Shown here one piece after another: positions 3 to 16,965 of a DNA stretch of 24,868 bases. The first letter of the stretch is position 1, and each line of letters begins with the position of its first letter. The notes under the pieces are model-generated. The model made no database searches. It worked only from the letters and a program-made list of their open reading frames with translations, and had not been told where the DNA came from. A program made the position numbers and the translations under genes. The stretch is from positions 1-24,868 of the IMG/VR virus record IMGVR_UViG_3300023284_000329; one strand, given 5' to 3'. Origin of the DNA: a virus.

Positions 3-191
3 AGCGATAATTTAGATTTAGGTAATAAAATGATGGATATAAATAAAAAATCTTTTGATTCAGGTCGGGGTAAGCCAATTTTTTCAGATGAACAAGTTAG
101 AGTGGTTTCAGGGCACGAGGCTGAATCCCAAGTTGAATTAGAAGAATTTAGTGAGAATGACGACGAAGAAAATTTTGATGTTGAAAATTAA
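3..191 (+). CDS. 3' end of an upstream gene, probably the portal protein (partial)
   Basis: This frame is open from the left edge of the window to a TAA at 189-191, so the start lies outside the window. An internal ATG at 30 would give only 53 residues and has a weak ribosome site. The visible tail is hydrophilic and very acidic near its end (EFSENDDEENFDVEN), which suits the disordered C-terminus of a phage portal protein. The next gene overlaps it and encodes a Mu F-like minor head protein, which normally sits directly after the portal gene. The portal assignment therefore rests on gene order, not on a recognised domain. It could also be a small separate acidic protein. Confidence 0.45.
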   Translation, partial: SDNLDLGNKMMDINKKSFDSGRGKPIFSDEQVRVVSGHEAESQVELEEFSENDDEENFDVEN

Positions 192-1167
192 TTCTTTACG
201 TAAGAGCGACATTGGCAATCCGATCGTTCCCCGCAATGCTAAGGATCCGGCGGCGCAATTTAATAACCTTCGAGGTGCAAAAAGGAAATTAGATGCTAGA
301 TATAACCGGATTAAAGTCGGTATTAAGCAATTAATCGGTTCTTTAGATAAGCGCGTAATATCAACTAACATTAAATATGAATATCAAATTGATGCATTAC
401 GCTTTCAAAATATTAATTTATTTATCCAGGAACTTTTATATCAAGAATTACTCGACGGACAAATACAATTATCGCCGCAATGGTGGCTTAACCCTAATTT
501 AACACAGGCTTATGAAGACGGCACCAGTGACGTATTACAATCATCTAAAAACATAGCTACGGTTGAATCTGTTGGCCCTGAGTTATCAAGAACCATGCGA
601 TCAATAACACTTGAGCAATTAGTTTTTAGCCGGGGGTTTCAAACTCGGGTAGGATTAGTTAGATCCCGTGTTTTTGAAGAAATGAAAGGTTTATCTGATT
701 CAACAAGGACCGATTTATCAGAAACATTAGCCAGGGGAATGATTAAAGGCGAAGGTATACGTAAATTAACCGATGATGTTATGAAGCGCGTTAATGTAAG
801 TCACAGTAGGGCTCAACGTATTGCTAGAACTGAAATATTAAACGCATACCGTACCGCTGGTGGTGTTGAAACTGATGAGTTAAACGAAGACGTATATGGT
901 GATTCTGAATGGGGTATGATGCAGTTGTGGTTCTCTGCTTTGGCCCCAACTTCTAGGCGCTGGCATATCGCCCGGCATGGTAAAACTTTTACGACAGACG
1001 ACGTTAGACAGTTTTATTCAGTTAATGCTAATGCTATAAACTGCTTATGTAGCCAAAGTGTTATTTTAGTCAATAAAAGGACTGGCGAAGTGCTCCAACA
1101 AGCTTTACTTGATAGGATGGACAAGCAGCGTAAAACGGCACTTGGTGTTGTTGATAAAGCTGCATAG
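178..1167 (+). CDS. Minor head protein, phage Mu F / SPP1 gp7 family
   Basis: This is a minor capsid protein of the Mu F-like head morphogenesis family; such proteins sit inside the head near the portal and assist assembly or DNA ejection. The family signature is seen in the C-terminal half: RAQRIARTEILNAYRTAGG at about residues 210-228, then a W/H-rich segment with RWHIARHGK near 258-267, and a Cys pair NCLC near 286-289, ending with a beta-rich tail. The N-terminal half is helical. Length (329 aa from ATG 178) fits the family. The frame is also open to ATG 157 and GTG 151. ATG 178 is preferred because it gives a 14-nt overlap with the upstream gene. It is on the + strand, opposite to all other head and tail genes here, and converges on the gene at 1168-1383 with directly adjacent stop codons. 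Confidence 0.85.
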   Translation: MLKINSLRKSDIGNPIVPRNAKDPAAQFNNLRGAKRKLDARYNRIKVGIKQLIGSLDKRVISTNIKYEYQIDALRFQNINLFIQELLYQELLDGQIQLSPQWWLNPNLTQAYEDGTSDVLQSSKNIATVESVGPELSRTMRSITLEQLVFSRGFQTRVGLVRSRVFEEMKGLSDSTRTDLSETLARGMIKGEGIRKLTDDVMKRVNVSHSRAQRIARTEILNAYRTAGGVETDELNEDVYGDSEWGMMQLWFSALAPTSRRWHIARHGKTFTTDDVRQFYSVNANAINCLCSQSVILVNKRTGEVLQQALLDRMDKQRKTALGVVDKAA

Positions 1168-5625: not shown

Positions 5626-8139
5626 TTAATCAAAAGCGTAAATTCTATCATCATATGTTACCATAGTTAATTGAACATTATTACCGCGCGCTTCTTTTTC
5701 TATCAATGTCCATCTAGCAGCATCAAGATCAATCGTTGTACCTATAATATACCTAGAGCCTGTCTGAATGTTAAAACCAAGAACTGAATCACGAACAAAT
5801 GCTTGACCTATATTTGAACTCTGAAATTTAAAAGGTTGCCCGGAAACCTCAGTTATTGAAAAAGGCCCAACTTTTGTTCCATCACCTAGCATGTAATGAA
5901 TAAATAAAGTTCCAACACTAAAATCAATTGATTCGCTTGTAGTGGCAACATCACCATTAATTGCTAATATTTCACCGTCAAAAACATCAGAGCTGTATTG
6001 TTCAGCATATAAAACCATATCACCCTTATCTAATAGCATTCCGGCAGGTAACATCGTTTCAGTAAGTGCATAGCGTTGATAGATTAGCTTTCTAATTTCC
6101 AGTTCAGCTCGGTTAATTGCATTTGATTCTTCGCTACAACCTGCAAGTTCCATTGTTCTTGGGTTCTTTCCTACTGCGTCGATAATTAATGGGTTTTCAG
6201 GGTCAGGGCTATTTATATCAAATGTTCTAAATATATATGCTTTTTTATTCGTTAAAGTGTCTACAAATTCAACCTTTACTGAGTCAAAAGATTCTAATAA
6301 TTGCGGATTGTAACTAACCGAATATTCACGATCATTAAAAGATATATCTCTTCTTGTTATTGTGGTTGATGCAAAAGGCCTGATATCATCCCTGGCAAAT
6401 CGATAAACATCACCATCTAGCCATTTAAAGCAACGTGCAACTTGTAGTATTGTATCCATTCGTTCATCCAATGAGACGTCAAGATCATCAAATGTAAAAT
6501 CAAATGTTGCAAGTTCAGGATTGATTTCATCAAGTCTATTTTGTATTTCGTATAATTCATCTAATGCTAATGTATTAGGATCAAGACCAAATATATCAAC
6601 ATACAAATGAAGTAATGCATCAGCCATTTTTCTAGATGCTGATGGAATTGTGACAACGTTAACACCGTCGTAAGTTATCAATTTGCTGGTTAGTGATAAG
6701 TTTATTTTGTTTTCTCTTAAAGATGTTGCGTTTACTGTGGCGGGCATAGTTATTTCAATTAACGTGTTATTCCCAAAGTTTACGTCGGTAAACCTATTTA
6801 TTGCATAAGCAGCATCAATTATCGTTTTATCTGGCTCTGATGCGCTGTTCAAACTTGAATCAGTTCTTGAGATTGTAAAATTATAAAATCCTTCTACTAG
6901 CACGGCTTTGAACGTCAAAAATTGTTGTTCTAATGTATCTCTTGTTATTGAAAAAGAAAATGATAGTTGAGGTCCAGATATTGGATCTCCATTTGGACCA
7001 TCAAGTTCTTGCATTAATAAGAAAAAATCAACCGTTCCTTTTAATCCGCTTGGGAAAGTAAAATTAAGCCATAGTTCTTGCATTTCAATAGCGACACCGA
7101 TAGGCCCAAGTGAAGTGCCAATCTTTTCAGTAACATCAAAAGGCGTATTATAGTTATAGGTATCATTTACATCTTTCTCACCTGTAAAGTTAAATAATGT
7201 AATAGTGTAAAATGTCAAACCACCATCTAAAACAATGGTATTTACAATTCCTGATCCGCTTGTGCTTAATTGAACGCCAACTCCTATAAAATCTGCCTTA
7301 TAATTAACATCTATAACAAATTGAGCAATAGCAGAGTCAAAATCTGATTTTAAGCTGTCAGAATTTGTATCCTTTATAACTTGGAATGTGAATGTATTAC
7401 CTATAAAAGTTGTTAAATTTGTGCCATTTTCTGTTAATTCGTATAGCGTTCCATCATCTCCATTATTTATAGCGAGTATTTCTTGCCCATCTATCTCATT
7501 TGTTGCGAAAGATGTTATTACATTTGGAACGGTAACAACCCTATCGACGGGCTCGTAAATAGTTGATGATGAATCAGTAAAGTTTGAAAATGGCGTATCT
7601 CCTGCCCTTATTGATGCTATATCAAATAACCCTATTCCGATATTCATTAATTGAGTAAATATTTTTTTATTGTCGATAAATTCGGTGATTGGCTCACCTG
7701 TCAAATCTGGATAAGATATCGGGCTACCAAAAATCGTAGGTAATGCTTGATATGGTCTTGCTATATTTGTTTGCCCTTGGAGATTATTATTAGGGCTATT
7801 TTTTTGTTGTCCTACGTTACCAGGAATTTTAGGTTTTAATAATACTATTGCGGCGACTGCGACTACAGCAATTGCAATCACAGCAATTACACCAAGGGCT
7901 TTAACTTCATTAACAATAGTCACCACATCATCATTGTGCAACGGTCCAAATAGATTTTGATCCAGATCGGAACTTATATTTATTTTTTCGTTATTTATAT
8001 AAATAACTGAGCAATCAGGATCAATGCCACCAGGAAAATGTTTCATTAACATTTCTGTAGCGGTAACATTATCATTAAAGCAAAATATCTCTTTACCAGT
8101 TACGTTATGCTGTCCATTTTGAATAATTAATTTAGGCAT
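5626..8139 (-). CDS. Tail hub / host-specificity protein, TipJ (gpJ-like) family
   Basis: This is the central tail-tip protein at the distal end of the tail tube, which carries the fibres and takes part in host recognition and penetration. At 837 aa it follows the known TipJ plan. Residues 1-78 are a small ubiquitin-like/gpI-like domain. Residues 81-102 are a strongly hydrophobic segment (ALGVIAVIAIAVVAVAAIVL). Then comes the family motif around 115-170: SPNNNLQGQTNIARPYQ, LPTIFG, and later IRAGDTPFSNF. The central part carries beta-rich hub domains, with IYEPVDRVV near residue 190 and RFARDDIRP near 590. It directly follows the NlpC/P60 gene (4-nt gap), as in lambda-like tail modules. The ATG at 8139 has only a weak GGG upstream, consistent with translational coupling. 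Confidence 0.85.
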   Translation of the reverse strand: MPKLIIQNGQHNVTGKEIFCFNDNVTATEMLMKHFPGGIDPDCSVIYINNEKINISSDLDQNLFGPLHNDDVVTIVNEVKALGVIAVIAIAVVAVAAIVLLKPKIPGNVGQQKNSPNNNLQGQTNIARPYQALPTIFGSPISYPDLTGEPITEFIDNKKIFTQLMNIGIGLFDIASIRAGDTPFSNFTDSSSTIYEPVDRVVTVPNVITSFATNEIDGQEILAINNGDDGTLYELTENGTNLTTFIGNTFTFQVIKDTNSDSLKSDFDSAIAQFVIDVNYKADFIGVGVQLSTSGSGIVNTIVLDGGLTFYTITLFNFTGEKDVNDTYNYNTPFDVTEKIGTSLGPIGVAIEMQELWLNFTFPSGLKGTVDFFLLMQELDGPNGDPISGPQLSFSFSITRDTLEQQFLTFKAVLVEGFYNFTISRTDSSLNSASEPDKTIIDAAYAINRFTDVNFGNNTLIEITMPATVNATSLRENKINLSLTSKLITYDGVNVVTIPSASRKMADALLHLYVDIFGLDPNTLALDELYEIQNRLDEINPELATFDFTFDDLDVSLDERMDTILQVARCFKWLDGDVYRFARDDIRPFASTTITRRDISFNDREYSVSYNPQLLESFDSVKVEFVDTLTNKKAYIFRTFDINSPDPENPLIIDAVGKNPRTMELAGCSEESNAINRAELEIRKLIYQRYALTETMLPAGMLLDKGDMVLYAEQYSSDVFDGEILAINGDVATTSESIDFSVGTLFIHYMLGDGTKVGPFSITEVSGQPFKFQSSNIGQAFVRDSVLGFNIQTGSRYIIGTTIDLDAARWTLIEKEARGNNVQLTMVTYDDRIYAFD

Positions 8140-12246: not shown

Positions 12247-12821
12247 TAGTGGACCTTATTCTTTTCTTCAAGCCAATTAAACAAATCGTTTCGTTCATCT
12301 TCTTCAATCTGCTTGTTTTTGTCTTCTGGGAATTTAGCATCCATCATTCTAACAAATTCAGTCATTGTCATGTTTGATGCTTCATTGGCAGATAAACCAA
12401 GATGCACGCGGGCCAACTCCATAAATTCGTAAGCGTTGAAATACTCTAACGGTTCGCCGTTACTTTCTTCTCTTTCAGATTTCCCGCAAACACCGTGCAA
12501 TAAACAATGTTCAGCTAGTATCATTACATCGTTAATCATTGGCAAACCATGACTAGGCTTTGAATATAAAAACTTATTATTCCACTCACTGAATTTAATT
12601 TCACCGGTTAACTCAACAGGTATTTCTTTATCACAGCAAGCATTAAGCACGTTGATAGCAATACTAAATTTATACCAAAAACTATTAGTAGAAATAAACG
12701 CCTTAAAATCATCGATTATTTCTTTAGGCGTACCAATCTTGGCAATATTGGCAAAAGTAGGCGCAAGACAGTATTTAACACCTTGCCACTCTATTTCAGC
12801 ATGACCGTAAGCTAAAAGCAT
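12246..12821 (-). CDS. Tail assembly chaperone-like protein (possibly DUF6246)
   Basis: This 191-aa helical protein lies between the tail tube and tape measure genes, the usual place of the tail assembly chaperone (lambda gpG/gpGT position). The sequence (EWQGVKYCLAPTFANIAKIGTP and later AYEFMELARVHLGLSANEASNMT) resembles a phage family I recall as DUF6246; the name is from memory. No second frame or slippery heptamer followed by an extension is obvious, so a gpG/gpGT-like frameshift product is not supported. TAATG overlaps occur at both ends, suggesting translation is tied to the tube and tape measure genes. Confidence 0.65.
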   Translation of the reverse strand: MLLAYGHAEIEWQGVKYCLAPTFANIAKIGTPKEIIDDFKAFISTNSFWYKFSIAINVLNACCDKEIPVELTGEIKFSEWNNKFLYSKPSHGLPMINDVMILAEHCLLHGVCGKSEREESNGEPLEYFNAYEFMELARVHLGLSANEASNMTMTEFVRMMDAKFPEDKNKQIEEDERNDLFNWLEEKNKVH

Positions 12822-13303
12822 TATGCTACGTTAACTGATAAATTTGCTGATCCCGTATCGGTAACGCTGAAATCAAACGAAATACTTTGTGGGTCATTGG
12901 TGCCGAATCCCTCTGTACCACCTTTGTAATTAGAGAATATATGCCATGTTAAAGGGTAATTATTTCCTGATACTCTAAGCCATACTGTCGGCTGTCTTCC
13001 TGCTTGCAATTCAGTAAAATAATAAGTAACGAGAGCAATTTGAGCTGACGTTGCAGAATCTTGTTGAGTAAAACCGCTAACGGCTACATCCATACCTGTT
13101 CGGATTACAATTTCAGAGGTTGTGCCTCCTGATGTGTCGCTTGTGTTATCTGCCGTTGTTGCTGAGTAGGTCAAATCTTTAGCGTTCATGGATCCCAAAG
13201 GTAGATAAGTCTTATTAATAAAGTCATCATCCCCGCAGCCGACAGCGCATTCAACCGCCACTAATCGTCCTGGGTTATTTGTAGGTGTTGTACAGCCAGA
13301 CAT
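12821..13303 (-). CDS. Major tail tube protein
   Basis: This is the probable subunit of the tail tube. It is 160 aa, beta-rich, with a central pattern LTYSATTADNTSDTSGGTTSEIV, then MDVAVSGF, and PTVWLRVSGNNYPLTWHIFSN, similar to lambda gpV-type tube proteins. Position directly before the chaperone and tape measure genes supports this. A strong GGAGAT (13316-13311) stands 7 nt before ATG 13303, as expected for an abundant protein. It begins a new transcription unit, with a terminator at 13367-13393 and an extended -10 promoter at 13344-13352 just upstream. Confidence 0.85.
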   Translation of the reverse strand: MSGCTTPTNNPGRLVAVECAVGCGDDDFINKTYLPLGSMNAKDLTYSATTADNTSDTSGGTTSEIVIRTGMDVAVSGFTQQDSATSAQIALVTYYFTELQAGRQPTVWLRVSGNNYPLTWHIFSNYKGGTEGFGTNDPQSISFDFSVTDTGSANLSVNVA

Positions 13304-13343
13304 GTTTTTTATCTCCGAGATAATATTAAATTAATTCTTTGAT

Positions 13344-13352
13344 ATTGTAACA
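13344..13352 (-). promoter_or_regulatory. Extended -10 promoter for the tail operon
   Basis: On the minus strand, TGTTACAAT (13352-13344) is a TGn extended -10 followed by TACAAT. A -35 hexamer is weak (TTTTAT-like), as is common for extended -10 promoters. It lies between the terminator at 13367-13393 and the tail tube gene and would give a leader of about 35 nt. Confidence 0.55.
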
Positions 13353-13366
13353 TGAAAATGATGTTA

Positions 13367-13393
13367 ATAAAAAAACCCTCAATTAAGAGGGTT
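13367..13393 (-). terminator. Rho-independent terminator upstream of the tail operon
   Basis: On the minus strand the stem AACCCTC/GAGGGTT with loop TTAATT is followed by a run of seven T. It ends transcripts coming from the head/neck genes and from the 82-aa cassette, so tail genes need their own promoter. Confidence 0.85.
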
Positions 13394-13537
13394 GTTTATA
13401 ATTGTTACGTTAATTAATCGTACACTTTAGCGGATGTAAGTCGGAGGGTCTTTTAAGCTCATTCTCACTCTATCACAAGATTTAAGCTATTGGCTCATGC
13501 TGCCTCAACAATTCTTCCTAGGTTGTCACCTGTTTTT
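13394..13537. other. Non-coding mosaic segment of foreign-looking composition
   Basis: No gene, tRNA or clear repeat is seen here. The stretch 13430-13530 looks richer in G+C than its neighbours and contains only short reading frames on the minus strand (for example one ending DPPTYIR near 13430). It joins the truncated neck-gene remnant to the terminator and looks like debris from a recombination or insertion event. Confidence 0.4.
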
Positions 13538-13690
13538 TTAATAAACATCTGTAAACCTACAATTTAGTAGAGTAATCGAAACTCTAATGCTTATAACAGC
13601 ATTAACAAACTGTGGCGCTTTCTTTTCGCTGATATCTTTAAAGATGCGCTTCATGTTGTCTTTTACTGTTTTGGCTCCAGACACTGGCAT
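13538..13690 (-). pseudogene. Truncated copy of the HK97 gp10-like neck gene
   Basis: The first 35 codons match the N-terminus of the intact gene at 14675-15133 (MPVSGAKTVKDNMKRIFKDI...). The nucleotide match covers 13590-13692 against 15033-15135 with two differences seen in 103 bp. After that the frame runs 15 unrelated codons to TAA at 13540-13538, giving a 50-aa product. The conserved part lacks the beta domain needed for neck assembly, so it is most likely a remnant. It follows the 82-aa gene as the intact copy follows the gene at 15133-15312. Confidence 0.8.
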
Positions 13691-13696
13691 TAACGT

Positions 13697-13945
13697 TTAT
13701 TCCTCTGACTCTTTTCTAATTTCAGTTATATTTTCTTCTAAATACTTAGATAGACCGATAAAACCATCAGTTTCTGACTTTTCATCAAAACCCCTGAACT
13801 TTACCCTTGCCGGAAAAACTTCAACAATTTCACCTGCATCATTAAAATTAAAAACAATAGCCCAGCCAAATAAATGCAAAGTTCTATTAACGACCCATAA
13901 CAATTTACTATCTCTGAATTCTTTCCAAGTTCTTTGTTTAATCAT
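13697..13945 (-). CDS. Conserved small phage protein of unknown function (82 aa)
   Basis: This is an intact reading frame with a pattern I recognise from many phages but without a known function: TWKEFRDSKLLWVVNRTLHLFGWAIVF, then VFPARVKFRGF, and a helical C-terminus (IGLSKYLEENITEIRKE). The motif around NR.LH.FGWAI and FRGF is the conserved core in this small family. GAGGTG lies 4-5 nt before ATG 13945. It is flanked by remnants of the adaptor gene (13955-14078) and the neck gene (13538-13690). In the intact copy of that gene order the same slot holds unrelated genes (15133-15635), so this is an alternative cassette. Confidence 0.75.
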   Translation of the reverse strand: MIKQRTWKEFRDSKLLWVVNRTLHLFGWAIVFNFNDAGEIVEVFPARVKFRGFDEKSETDGFIGLSKYLEENITEIRKESEE

Positions 13946-13954
13946 TCTTCACCT

Positions 13955-14078
13955 CTAAGTTAACACCATAACATCATCAGTTTGCTTTCCACCATCCTGC
14001 AACTTTCCAACACGAACAAATTCAATGCCCGTTACATTTGTCGGGTCGGCTTGTGCCGTATTATCACCTAATGCAATC
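13955..14078 (-). pseudogene. 3' remnant of the head-tail adaptor gene
   Basis: The last 41 codons of the adaptor gene at 15648-15998 are repeated here, ending in the same VMVLT and TAG. The nucleotide match covers 13953-14078 against 15646-15771 with five differences seen in 126 bp. The frame is closed by TAG just upstream of the match and no start codon or ribosome site is present, so it is not translated on its own. Confidence 0.85.
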
Positions 14079-14211
14079 TATCGCTACCCTACCCCAATCG
14101 ATTTACAACGCTCATGGCGGTCATCATTCTTTGGTTACTATCACGATAACTATGTCTATCCACAGTGACTAACTAACTTGATATGAATACTAAATCAATA
14201 CAAACACAATG
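14079..14211. other. Non-coding junction segment between adaptor remnant and tail terminator gene
   Basis: No recognisable gene is present. The minus strand carries a short frame starting GTG near 14164 (MDRHSYRDSNQRMMTAMS, then VVNRLG and a stop) that reads like a gene fragment but is too short to identify. The part 14079-14160 looks richer in G+C than the surrounding phage sequence. It begins right at the stop of the tail terminator gene. Confidence 0.4.
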
Positions 14212-14215
14212 TCAA
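14187..14215 (-). promoter_or_regulatory. Strong sigma-70 promoter reading into the 82-aa cassette
   Basis: On the minus strand, TTGACA (14215-14210), a 17-bp spacer, and TAGTAT (14192-14187) form a near-consensus promoter. The -35 includes the stop codon of the preceding gene (TGA 14214-14212). It points toward the 82-aa gene at 13945. The spacer contains TTGTGTTTG, close to the half-site seen at the other accessory promoters. Confidence 0.65.
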
Positions 14216-14673
14216 GCATCAAAGTTAAACATAACCGTAATGTTTATCTCAAATGCACGACGACCATCTTCTGTGATAAACGGCCCGGTAACGCCCGAGC
14301 TTTCAATATTAGCAATACAACCACTATCTTGAAATGTTTTAACGAAATATGCCTCTATATCATCAGCAAAACCATTAGTAATTGTTCGATCAGTTTCGCC
14401 AACTTTTCCAACAACCAAAACCAGCATAGGCCGCAACTTGAAAAACTGCCTTGTTGAAGATGTTATATTCCCGGAATTTCTAACCATAATAATTCTATCG
14501 CTTGGCGTCACTGCATCAGCATCGTTATCATCTGGTATCAAATTTAATTCGAATGCTTGGAATTTTGGCGCAGGTTGGGCATTGCCGAAAATATCGGTGA
14601 ATGATGAAAGAAAACCACCAGCGGCGATATGTTCTTGCATTTGTTTTACTTCTAAATCTGCTAATATTGCCAT
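14212..14673 (-). CDS. Tail terminator-like protein
   Basis: This 153-aa protein is probably the tail terminator that caps the tail tube and joins it to the neck (lambda gpU-like role). It comes directly after the HK97 gp10-like gene and before the tail tube gene, the normal position. The alternating helix/strand pattern with FQAFELNLIPDDNDADAV and a C-terminal ITEDGRRAFEINITVMFNF fits this group (DUF4128-like, from memory). AAGG lies 6 nt before ATG 14673. Unusually, a mosaic cassette of about 0.85 kb separates it from the tail tube gene. Confidence 0.7.
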   Translation of the reverse strand: MAILADLEVKQMQEHIAAGGFLSSFTDIFGNAQPAPKFQAFELNLIPDDNDADAVTPSDRIIMVRNSGNITSSTRQFFKLRPMLVLVVGKVGETDRTITNGFADDIEAYFVKTFQDSGCIANIESSGVTGPFITEDGRRAFEINITVMFNFDA

Positions 14674-14674
14674 A

Positions 14675-15133
14675 CTAGACCTTAAATATATCCTCTGCTC
14701 TCTTGATTAACGCAACACTTTCAGAATCTTCAAATCCTCTATTTAAAAACCTAGGTCTTGCTTGCATATTGGTTGCTGGTGCCCCTGGTCTTGATTGCGT
14801 TATTACTCTAAGGTCATTAGATCGTCCACCTTTAATTTCATACTTAGGCAATGGCTTTGGCTTCCATAAAGGCGTATATGTTTCTGTGCCGTTCAAATAC
14901 ACCGCATAATTAGCATTATATACAACGGAACCAGTAACCATGCCACTACTGATATTAACATCTGTTATTATGCTATTTATTAGATTTGAATAGGCAATTG
15001 GTGTTAATTCTTTGGCGTGATTAACACCGATACTTATAACAGCATTAACAAACTGTGGCGCTTTCTTTTCGCTGATATCTTTAAAGATGCGCTTCATGTT
15101 GTCTTTTACTGTTTTGGCTCCGGATACTGGCAT
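14675..15133 (-). CDS. HK97 gp10-like tail completion / neck protein
   Basis: This 152-aa protein belongs to the HK97 gp10-like family that completes the neck between head and tail. The family pattern is seen: AKELTPIAYSNLINSI near residues 39-54, SGMVTGSVVYNANYAVYLNGTE near 62-83, and QARPRFLNRGFEDSE near the C-terminus. It overlaps the upstream 59-aa gene by TAATG and precedes the tail terminator gene by 1 nt. Its first 35 codons are duplicated as a remnant at 13590-13690. Confidence 0.85.
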   Translation of the reverse strand: MPVSGAKTVKDNMKRIFKDISEKKAPQFVNAVISIGVNHAKELTPIAYSNLINSIITDVNISSGMVTGSVVYNANYAVYLNGTETYTPLWKPKPLPKYEIKGGRSNDLRVITQSRPGAPATNMQARPRFLNRGFEDSESVALIKRAEDIFKV

Positions 15134-15312
15134 TACTCAATAATATCCCATCTAAAAGATTTTATATCATCTAAATTAATAAGGATATTTGATTTTTCAT
15201 CAATTGGTTTTAATAATAAAAATTTATTAATTTGATAGTCGTGAGTATTTCTAACTGTAATATTCCTGATTTCTCCATTATTAAATTCTATTGAGTATTT
15301 AAATTTATTCAT
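15133..15312 (-). CDS. Small hypothetical protein (59 aa)
   Basis: The function is not recognised. The protein starts MNKFKYSIEFNNGEIRNITV, contains DYQINKFLLLKP, and ends IKSFRWDIIE; it looks like a small beta/alpha domain. It is well supported as a gene: AAGGG lies 6 nt before ATG 15312, the ATG overlaps the stop of the preceding gene (ATGA), and its stop overlaps the start of the neck gene (TAATG). In the duplicated copy of this region (13.6-14.0 kb) it is absent and replaced by an 82-aa gene. Confidence 0.7.
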   Translation of the reverse strand: MNKFKYSIEFNNGEIRNITVRNTHDYQINKFLLLKPIDEKSNILINLDDIKSFRWDIIE

Positions 15313-15635
15313 AAATAACCCTTGATGAATAAATTTTCAACGCAAATAATAACCCCGTCATCTTTATGCGCCACTTGTGCATCAGGTATCATCATTAATG
15401 ATGTATGAGTATCTCGTATATTTAGATTAAATGCTGTGCATTTATCTTCTCCTAGCTCTTTTGTTGTAATTAATTTTACCCAAAACCTCCCTAAGTCGTC
15501 TCTAATAAAGCCAAGTAATCCTTTAATTTCTAACTTGTGTTTTCCAGCATAAATACCTAGCGTTTTATGCATTGCCTTTACGTGATCCCATGAATCTTTA
15601 TTTTCTTCTATTTCGGTTATCAATGGTATATTCAT
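15309..15635 (-). CDS. Hypothetical accessory protein (108 aa)
   Basis: The family is not recognised. The N-terminal half is helical and charged (EENKDSWDHVKAMHKTLGIYAGKHKLEI), the middle has LLGFIRDDLGRFWVKLITTKE, and the C-terminal half is beta-rich with HTSLMMIPDAQVAHKDDGVIICVENLFI. A strong AGAGG stands 6 nt before ATG 15635. It lies between the adaptor and neck genes, where many phages carry optional small genes. The sequence just upstream of its ribosome site is shared with the remnant cassette at 13.95 kb, and the match ends at the ribosome site. Confidence 0.7.
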   Translation of the reverse strand: MNIPLITEIEENKDSWDHVKAMHKTLGIYAGKHKLEIKGLLGFIRDDLGRFWVKLITTKELGEDKCTAFNLNIRDTHTSLMMIPDAQVAHKDDGVIICVENLFIKGYL

Positions 15636-15647
15636 AATTACCTCTCT

Positions 15648-15998
15648 CTAAGTTAACACCATAACATCATCAGTTTGCTTTCCACCATCTTGCAACTTAC
15701 CAACACGAACAAATTCAATACCCGTTACATTTGTGGGATCGGCTTGTGCCGTATTATCACCTAATGCAATCGGGCTGTTGAGCGCAGGAACCCCATTAGC
15801 AGTTAATTCATACCAATAGATAGACTTGGGTATAAATGCATTGCCTTGTGAATCGTTGTATTGCTTGGTTGCTCCCTGTTCGAAATTTACCTTTTCAGTG
15901 AAAGGCGTTCCGTAAGTAATGCCAGTAAACTGATCTGTTCCGGTAATAGGCCAGATTGTTACTATTTTTTTTGCGCCTCTTCTTGTTGGTCTAGTCAT
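15648..15998 (-). CDS. Head-tail adaptor protein
   Basis: This small (116 aa) beta-rich protein sits between the connector and the gp10-like gene, the usual place for the stopper/adaptor. It starts MTRPTRRGAKKIVTIWPITG and contains TGITYGTPFTEKVNFEQG and the C-terminal VGKLQDGGKQTDDVMVLT, consistent with the small head-tail joining protein fold. ATG 15998 is chosen; an in-frame TTG at 16013 would add five residues. It overlaps the upstream Cys-rich membrane protein gene by 8 nt. The last 41 codons are duplicated at 13955-14078. Confidence 0.7.
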   Translation of the reverse strand: MTRPTRRGAKKIVTIWPITGTDQFTGITYGTPFTEKVNFEQGATKQYNDSQGNAFIPKSIYWYELTANGVPALNSPIALGDNTAQADPTNVTGIEFVRVGKLQDGGKQTDDVMVLT

Positions 15999-16290
15999 TT
16001 TTATAATACTCAAGATCTGGAGCAGGTATATTTAAATCAGGCTCATTAGTCTGGCAAGGTTGATAACCTGATTTCATTGAGCAACCAGGGCAAAAGCATT
16101 TATTTTCTTGTTTTGCTGGTTTTATTGGTGGCATAGTGGGAGTGTGTAAAGCATCCATTAGCCCGAATTCATCAACTTTTCTTTCTTTTTTATTTTTTGG
16201 ACAAGGTTTATCAGGCTTTATTTCTGGCGTTTTATATGTAAATATACCAATTACCCAACCAGCCAAAAAATACAAAATATATTCAAACAT
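15991..16290 (-). CDS. Small membrane-anchored Cys-rich protein (99 aa)
   Basis: The function is not recognised. ATG 16290 has a perfect AGGAGG 6 nt upstream, so translation should be strong; the longer open frame upstream lacks such a site. Residues 3-19 are one membrane segment (EYILYFLAGWVIGIFTY), followed by a Lys/Pro-rich linker with Cys30, and a compact Cys cluster C65-F-C67-P-G-C70, then C79, resembling a metal-binding knuckle. Topology by charge puts the Cys-rich tail in the cytoplasm if the N-terminus is outside. It sits between connector and adaptor genes but is unlikely to be a neck protein. Confidence 0.65.
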   Translation of the reverse strand: MFEYILYFLAGWVIGIFTYKTPEIKPDKPCPKNKKERKVDEFGLMDALHTPTMPPIKPAKQENKCFCPGCSMKSGYQPCQTNEPDLNIPAPDLEYYKND

Positions 16291-16298
16291 AAAACCTC

Positions 16299-16682
16299 CT
16301 AACAAGGTGTGGCAGGATCGCCACCGGACAAGAATAAAAAAGTTGGTGCAAATAAAGAGTTGTAACACAGGCTTGTGTCTAGTGTAATCACTAGCCTACC
16401 AAAGTAGGTAGACTTTAACCCTTCACCGCTTCCGTGGTTCTCATAATTGATACTAGCACCATTCGGTGCCCTTTCTGATTTAATTTCCCCGGCATCAGAA
16501 CTTACAACTAAATGACATATAGAATATTGTAAAATCGTGGTTGCCAGCGCCAATGGATAAGATGATTCTACGCAATCACCCATGGCAGCCGTGACGGTAT
16601 CAATTAAATTTTGTACGACAGCATCAGGCAATTGAGATGGACACATTGCGTTTATTTCAGCTACCGTGATCACTATTGCCAT
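16299..16682 (-). CDS. Head-tail connector protein (DUF4054/DUF7370-like)
   Basis: This is the probable connector completion protein that binds under the portal. It starts with the helical pattern TVAEINAMCPSQLPDAVVQNLIDTV, typical of gp6/gp15-like connectors, and has KSERAPNGASINYENHGSG followed by YFGRLVITLDTS, the pattern of connector families I recall as DUF7370 or DUF4054 (names from memory). At 127 aa it has the usual size. AGGGG lies 7 nt before ATG 16682. Confidence 0.7.
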   Translation of the reverse strand: MAIVITVAEINAMCPSQLPDAVVQNLIDTVTAAMGDCVESSYPLALATTILQYSICHLVVSSDAGEIKSERAPNGASINYENHGSGEGLKSTYFGRLVITLDTSLCYNSLFAPTFLFLSGGDPATPC

Positions 16683-16683
16683 T

Positions 16684-16965
16684 TTATGCCCCTGCGAACT
16701 TAACTATAACACCACCGATAATGACAGCTACAATTATTGAAGCTGTGACGGAATTTCTAATTTTATTATTGTTATCTTTCATTTCTTCGAGTGATGGCAT
16801 TTTAGTTTCAACAGTTCTCAATCTGGTTTGATAATCTTTCATATCGACCTTGAGGTCATCCATTTGTTTATGATACCATTTGAATTCGCCGACAAGTTCG
16901 GATAATTTAGACGTTAATTCCGCTAATCCGGTTTCTATTTTATCTAGTTTATCTTCACTCATCAT
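16684..16965 (-). CDS. Coiled-coil protein with C-terminal membrane anchor (XhlA-like)
   Basis: This is a 93-aa protein whose residues 5-65 form a heptad-rich coiled coil (LDKIETGLAELTSKLSELVGEF...) and whose residues about 72-92 form one C-terminal membrane segment (TASIIVAVIIGGVIVKFAG). This plan matches XhlA/haemolysin-like holin accessory proteins. It follows a holin-like gene, supporting a lysis role, though an assembly role cannot be excluded. Starts at 16983, 16965 and 16962 are possible; 16965 or 16962 keeps only a short overlap with the preceding gene (stop at 16955) and has GGAT upstream. Confidence 0.65.
   Translation of the reverse strand: MMSEDKLDKIETGLAELTSKLSELVGEFKWYHKQMDDLKVDMKDYQTRLRTVETKMPSLEEMKDNNNKIRNSVTASIIVAVIIGGVIVKFAGA

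What the first reader, a model, noticed from the sequence alone, without database searches (positions are those of the whole stretch)
13538..14078. Decayed second copy of the adaptor-to-neck junction enclosing a different gene
13953-14078 repeats the end of the adaptor gene (15646-15771; five differences in 126 bp) and 13590-13692 repeats the start of the neck gene (15033-15135; two differences in 103 bp). The order is the same, but the interval holds an intact 82-aa gene instead of the 108-aa and 59-aa genes. The matches stop at the ribosome sites. This looks like an alternative accessory cassette brought in with its flanks from a close relative, then joined at a new place, showing how optional genes swap between adaptor and neck genes.
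Basis: seen in the sequence. Interest (0 to 1): 0.7.

Follow-up and report, generated by a model that had tools for sequence, protein, structure and literature searches.

The report
Stray connector-gene fragment carrying phage gene
A bacterial virus carries, in a spare-gene slot of its tail-gene region, a short truncated piece of a related virus's head-tail joint genes with one small intact gene inside, which shows how such viruses trade optional genes but is a new example of a known kind of exchange.

Summary
The repeats are real: 13953-14078 copies the adaptor gene's end (5 differences in 126 nt), 13590-13692 the neck gene's start (2 in 103), with an intact 82-aa gene between. All 7 differences are synonymous (dN 0, dS 0.19), so the copies diverged while functional. 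They are truncated, not decayed.

The piece lies between the tail-terminator and tail-tube genes, an interval that in most relatives has promoter-like and terminator-like sites at its ends and unrelated small genes or tRNAs inside. In the closest relative (L059) sequence downstream of its tRNA matches window 13543-13588, so native sequence resumes where the neck copy stops, at a shared ATAAG; 13538-13589 is not neck remnant.

The adaptor/neck junction is an optional-gene slot: empty in 8 of 15 relatives, filled by other genes in 7. None holds the 82-aa gene there, so the donor arrangement is inferred from the fragment alone. The 82-aa family is nomadic, of unknown function, and sits upstream of the terminase genes in relative L005.

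Best reading: recent ectopic insertion of a relative's slot-1 segment into a second accessory slot. Without reads, an assembly chimera is unlikely but not excluded.

The parts
13953..14078 (-). copy of the adaptor gene's 3' end (40 sense codons, stop TAG at 13955-13957)
   Evidence: 126 nt, 5 differences from 15646-15771, all synonymous
13697..13945 (-). intact 82-aa gene, phrog_16397, function unknown
   Evidence: phrog_16397 E 1.8e-30; relatives L004 and L005 at 76% and 74%; pN 0.14 with pS about 0.8 against them; predicted fold helix-helix-strand-strand-helix, pLDDT 90.8
13590..13692 (-). copy of the neck gene's 5' end (ATG at 13690; 33 codons)
   Evidence: 103 nt, 2 differences from 15033-15135, both synonymous
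13543..13588 (-). native slot-2 sequence; left junction of the insert lies at its edge
   Evidence: 46 nt, 87% identical to L059 5839-5884, which lies in that phage's own terminator-to-tube interval, downstream of a tRNA
13417..13473 (-). native slot-2 element shared with another relative
   Evidence: 57 nt, 84% identical to the slot 2 of L039
13374..13393 (-). intrinsic-terminator-like hairpin closing the slot
   Evidence: scan; same hairpin sequence in L059; strict hairpin at this place in 11 of 13 loci scanned
14187..14215 (-). promoter-like TTGACA-17-TAGTAT at the end of the tail-terminator gene
   Evidence: 10 of 12 matches; TTGAC-type site in the slot of 12 of 13 loci scanned, also in L059, not in L091
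14079..14202 (.). right flank of the insert, of unknown origin
   Evidence: no better than shuffles against 12 slot-2 sequences
15648..16013 (-). intact adaptor (head-closure) gene, source-type locus
   Evidence: phrog_797 E 7.5e-11; some relatives annotated head-closure protein
14675..15133 (-). intact neck (HK97 gp10-like) gene
   Evidence: phrog_5 tail completion or Neck1 E 9.9e-10; PF04883 just below its cutoff
15309..15635 (-). 108-aa gene, present occupant of slot 1
   Evidence: ORF; no relative found in viral contigs
15133..15312 (-). 59-aa gene, present occupant of slot 1
   Evidence: ORF; GC 0.19; no family match
14212..14673 (-). tail-terminator gene, upstream border of slot 2
   Evidence: PF23842 E 1.6e-7
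12821..13303 (-). major tail (tube) gene, downstream border of slot 2
   Evidence: phrog_853 major tail protein E 2.8e-22

Best explanation
A segment of about 490 bp (13590-14078) from a sibling phage, whose adaptor/neck slot held the 82-aa gene, was joined into the terminator/tube accessory slot of this phage. It contained the last 40 codons of the adaptor gene, a ribosome site, the 82-aa gene and the first 33 codons of the neck gene. It lies where the closest relative has a tRNA. Shown: the repeats, the all-synonymous divergence, the slot character of both places, and the left junction. Inferred: the donor, co-infection as the occasion, and illegitimate joining at a few shared bases (ATAAG on the left) rather than by long homology. 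The slot is bounded by promoter-like and terminator-like sites, so the truncated flanks are probably harmless while the 82-aa gene may be expressed. What that protein does is unknown; a small accessory host-interaction factor is my guess.
For: All 7 of 7 differences in 73 sense codons are synonymous, dN 0, dS 0.19. The adaptor/neck junction is empty in 8 and filled by unrelated genes in 7 of 15 relatives. Slot 2 has variable content in the relatives, with a TTGAC-type promoter-like site in 12 of 13 and a strict hairpin terminator in 11 of 13 loci scanned. L059's slot 2 matches the window up to the junction. The 82-aa family occurs in many contexts, including L005, whose terminase is 75% identical to that of L006's phage. 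Members of this group share samples: L006 with L040, L037 with L039.
Against: No genome with adaptor - 82-aa gene - neck was found. The right flank 14079-14202 matches nothing. The ATAAG junction uses a relative of about 70-72% nucleotide identity as proxy for the pre-insertion site. Seven differences are few. No reads were available.
Confidence: 0.62

Rival explanations
1. Own copy first, swap later. The ancestor itself carried the 82-aa gene at the adaptor/neck slot, a segment was duplicated into slot 2, and slot 1 was then replaced by homologous exchange with a relative carrying the 108-aa and 59-aa genes.
For: Explains the same synonymous differences; slot 1 is plainly exchangeable. Both versions share the leader TTAGAG after the adaptor gene.
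Against: Needs two events instead of one; the differences do not form a clear tract next to the slot.
Confidence: 0.2
2. Assembly chimera: a read or contig error joined a sibling's segment into this contig.
For: Metagenome-type virus record; related strains do co-occur in samples; no reads could be checked.
Against: Two separate false joins would be needed, and neither outer boundary shows a long word shared with its proxy (5 nt on the left). The native sequence resumes cleanly and the terminator follows.
Confidence: 0.12
3. In-place duplication followed by mutational decay (pseudogene debris).
For: Both flanking gene copies are truncated.
Against: No non-synonymous change, frameshift or stop in 73 codons; 7 of 7 synonymous has a chance of 2e-5 to 2e-4 without constraint. 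The enclosed gene differs from those at the source site.
Confidence: 0.04

Closest known systems
Phage mosaics from exchange of small fragments between related phages (PMC3945230; passages seen)
   Same: Short exchanged pieces of high identity: median 404-494 bp and 95-96% identity among temperate and defective phages, close to this piece. About two thirds lacked detected homology traces at their borders.
   Different: Those mosaics were counted between genomes; here the piece sits in the same genome as its homologous source site, at a non-allelic place. Temperate lifestyle was not established here.
Morons: single genes between promoter and terminator inserted between two phage genes (definition as in PMC4378225; passages seen)
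   Same: One small intact gene of lower GC (0.31 against 0.38-0.42 in the four neighbouring structural genes) between a promoter-like and a terminator-like site, between two structural genes.
   Different: The promoter-like and terminator-like sites belong to the slot, not to the insert, and the insert drags truncated ends of other structural genes with it.
Regions of genomic plasticity in Mu-like phages (PMC4378225; passages seen)
   Same: Fixed sites with zero to several short variable ORFs in the genome.
   Different: Here one region shows material that came with another region's flanks.

Membership tests
Moron | gene inserted between two genes that are adjacent in relatives | tested here: met
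   slot between tail-terminator and tube genes holds different content in the relatives
Moron | flanked by its own promoter and terminator | tested here: inconclusive
   consensus-like sites present, but they are features of the slot, and promoter-like matches overall are no more frequent than in shuffles (10 against 13.1)
Moron | base composition unlike neighbours | tested here: met
   GC 0.313 against 0.377-0.422 for neck, adaptor, terminator and tube genes; the record's mean is 0.363
Moron | independent expression | not testable with these tools
   needs RNA data
Recent mosaic exchange between related phages | segment of more than 90% identity to a relative within unlike surroundings | tested here: inconclusive
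   96-97% identity in both arms to this genome's own adaptor and neck genes, flanks unrelated to the source site; identity to the donor itself could not be measured
Recent mosaic exchange between related phages | donor genome identified | tested here: not met
   no record with adaptor - 82-aa gene - neck
Mobile element (transposase or homing endonuclease) | encoded mobility gene within the insert | tested here: not met
   only the 82-aa ORF; no Pfam, NCBIfam or PADLOC match and no PDB fold match at E below 0.001
DUF7415 | sequence match to the family model | tested here: not met
   no Pfam match at E up to 1; only structural similarity to phage proteins named DUF7415, Foldseek E 0.02-0.3

The most novel reading that the evidence does not exclude
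Accessory genes in this phage group move from slot to slot without any mobility gene: cassettes are cut out of one junction with the ends of the adjoining structural genes and captured by a tRNA-bearing slot bounded by promoter and terminator signals, which works as a landing pad where truncated flanks do no harm.
Probability: 0.15. Interest if true: 0.5.

Novelty: new member of a known kind. Interest (0 to 1): 0.3.

Why it matters
It catches one gene transfer soon after it happened, with both arms still readable, so the source site, the landing site and one junction can be named. It also shows that head-tail connector genes in this group are punctuated by slots with interchangeable small genes. 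If slot-to-slot capture recurs, it would help explain how nomadic genes such as phrog_16397 come to sit in so many contexts.

Tried and rejected
Known phages: no nucleotide match to 12821-16700. Donor arrangement: tblastn over all 98 fetched relative loci gave 33 with the 82-aa family, 26 with adaptor or neck, none with both. Whole-record searches gave 0 of 21 adaptor-bearing records with the 82-aa family and 0 of 24 family records with the adaptor (24 of the 32 family loci were given: L017, L018, L025, L027, L036 and the three bacterial contigs L048-L050 were left out). Positive controls for both profiles worked. The 108-aa gene has no relative in viral contigs. Neck protein alone: none confirmed. 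Similar fragment duplications: none in 17 relative loci apart from two short repeats of 32 and 52 nt, in L007 and L053. Rfam: no family in the window, only chance-level hits in the insert region. Folding of the native slot-2 remnant is not clearly better than shuffles, z -1.4. PDB sequence and fold searches of the 82-aa protein gave nothing useful. Paper searches for like cases listed general papers on mosaics and morons; one search listed none; I saw listings only, except passages of PMC4378225, PMC3945230 and PMC5288847. A paper search for DUF7415 listed none.

Notebook correction: entry 2 gives 13450-13507 for the element shared with L039; the right place is 13417-13473.

Full report
WHAT IS THERE. 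The window is a 24,868-base virus record with a siphophage-like late gene cluster on the minus strand. Read in the direction of transcription it runs adaptor (15648-16013), 108-aa gene, 59-aa gene, neck (14675-15133), tail terminator (14212-14673), a 908-nt interval, tail tube (12821-13303). The interval holds the find. Repeat searching recovered the two direct repeats as described, and the base-by-base comparison gave 5 differences in 126 and 2 in 103. The longest exact word shared with the source region is 89 nt, against 10-11 in five shuffles.

TRUNCATED, NOT DECAYED. In the 73 sense codons that can be compared all 7 differences are synonymous: dN 0, dS 0.19, with 42 synonymous and 177 non-synonymous sites. 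For random substitutions the chance of 7 of 7 is 2e-5 to 2e-4 depending on the transition bias. A copy without function should collect mainly amino-acid changes, so nearly all divergence must date from when both versions were working genes. The copies are cut off in the neck gene after about codon 33 and in the adaptor gene before codon 82.

SLOT 1, ADAPTOR/NECK. I could score 15 relatives (L006, L007, L008, L037, L039-L044, L046, L047, L053, L059, L091). L045 ends after the adaptor gene and was dropped; the five distant loci L054-L058 were not scored. In 8 (L006, L007, L037, L040, L042, L044, L053, L091) the adaptor stop overlaps or abuts the neck start. In 7 (L008, L039, L041, L043, L046, L047, L059) the place is filled, by ORFs of 65 (L039), 52 (L008, L043), 74 (L059) or 41 and 43 aa (L046 and L047, which share them), or by nearly 1 kb with several ORFs (L041). 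None is the 82-aa gene. Further small genes or gaps occur in some relatives before the adaptor (L040, L053) and between neck and terminator genes (L039, L040, L053).

SLOT 2, TERMINATOR/TUBE. This interval is 341-1249 nt in the 11 relatives measured, 722 in L053, and about 660 and 516 in L059 and L091. Over the window and 12 relatives a TTGAC-type promoter-like site lies in it in 12 of 13, and a strict hairpin terminator before the tube gene in 11 of 13 (L039 has an imperfect one by eye; L053 none). L059 has both; L091 has neither that I can see. As plain pattern matches promoter-like sites are not enriched (10 against 13.1 in shuffles); the argument rests on their repeated position. Content varies: membrane-protein-like ORFs, antisense genes, or mainly non-coding DNA with tRNA genes (ARAGORN: Asn in L041, Pro in L042, Lys in L047; Rfam tRNA of 32.3 bits in L059, which ARAGORN does not call).

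THE JUNCTION. L059 is the closest relative found, with 70-72% nucleotide identity over the longer aligned blocks. In its slot 2, downstream of the tRNA, 5839-5884 is 87% identical to window 13543-13588, and the same terminator hairpin follows. The neck copy ends at 13590, so native sequence resumes at the very edge of the copy. The three sequences share ATAAG there: neck GTTATAAGTATC, L059 slot 2 AAATAAGAATATTAG, window GTTATAAGCATTAG. That fits joining at a few shared bases, though L059 is only a proxy. The other flank, 14079-14202, resembles no slot-2 sequence better than shuffles do; only the promoter-like start matches L059. The window has no tRNA, so the insert lies where L059 has its tRNA.

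THE 82-AA GENE. It belongs to phrog_16397, unknown function. I found 32 loci: 29 in viral contigs and 3 in bacterial genome contigs. Neighbours vary widely in the 23 loci that I listed: before the terminase genes (L004, L005), after a large ORF that looks like a portal (L048), next to a dUTPase-like ORF (L013), and so on; these neighbour labels are by eye. L005 is of special weight: its large terminase is 75% identical to that of L006's phage and its protease-like protein 41% to the window's, so the gene does travel in this group, but there it sits upstream of the terminase genes. Between the window copy and L004 or L005, pN is 0.14 while pS is near saturation, so the family is under purifying selection. 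AlphaFold2 gives a confident small helix-helix-strand-strand-helix fold (pLDDT 90.8) with no significant PDB match and weak similarity to phage proteins named DUF7415.

READING. The simplest account is one event: DNA of a sibling with adaptor - 82-aa gene - neck entered this lineage and was joined at a non-allelic, permissive slot. Its size and identity are close to the medians reported for recent phage mosaics (404-494 bp, 95-96%; PMC3945230, passages), and about two thirds of those lacked detectable homology at their borders; the same authors think illegitimate joining is rarer than homologous exchange. Relatives do share samples (L006 with L040; L037 with L039), and L059 shares sample 3300022707 with L004, which carries the 82-aa family. 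The rival in which slot 1 was swapped after an internal duplication explains the same data with one more event. A chimeric assembly would need two false joins without long shared words; I cannot exclude it without reads.

LIMITS. The donor was not found. Expression and function are untested.

Noticed in passing
L007, L008, L041, L042, L043, L044, L047, L059: interval between tail-terminator and tube genes: Mainly non-coding stretches with conserved spacers, tRNA genes and tRNA-like inserts between a promoter-like site and a terminator: apparently a modular RNA locus in these phages. No Rfam family other than tRNA reached its gathering score in the loci searched.
   Followed up: partly
L037, L039, L040, L041, L042, L043 slot 2: A recurring motif like TAAGGNGGTGA, seen by eye (loosely in L041), resembles an extended Shine-Dalgarno sequence (recalled), in L037 without a following gene.
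   Followed up: no
window 13417-13473 and L039 slot 2: A 57-nt element at 84% identity shared by otherwise unlike slot-2 sequences.
   Followed up: partly
L007, L041, L042: The tail-assembly-chaperone-like gene after the tube gene lies on the opposite strand, unlike in the other relatives that hold it.
   Followed up: no
L004, L005, L010-L036, L048-L050: phrog_16397 is a nomadic small phage gene with a confident but unmatched fold, found in many unrelated contexts.
   Followed up: partly
window 151-1167 (+): A 338-aa ORF on the strand opposite to the structural genes that looks by eye like a phage head morphogenesis protein; not tested.
   Followed up: no
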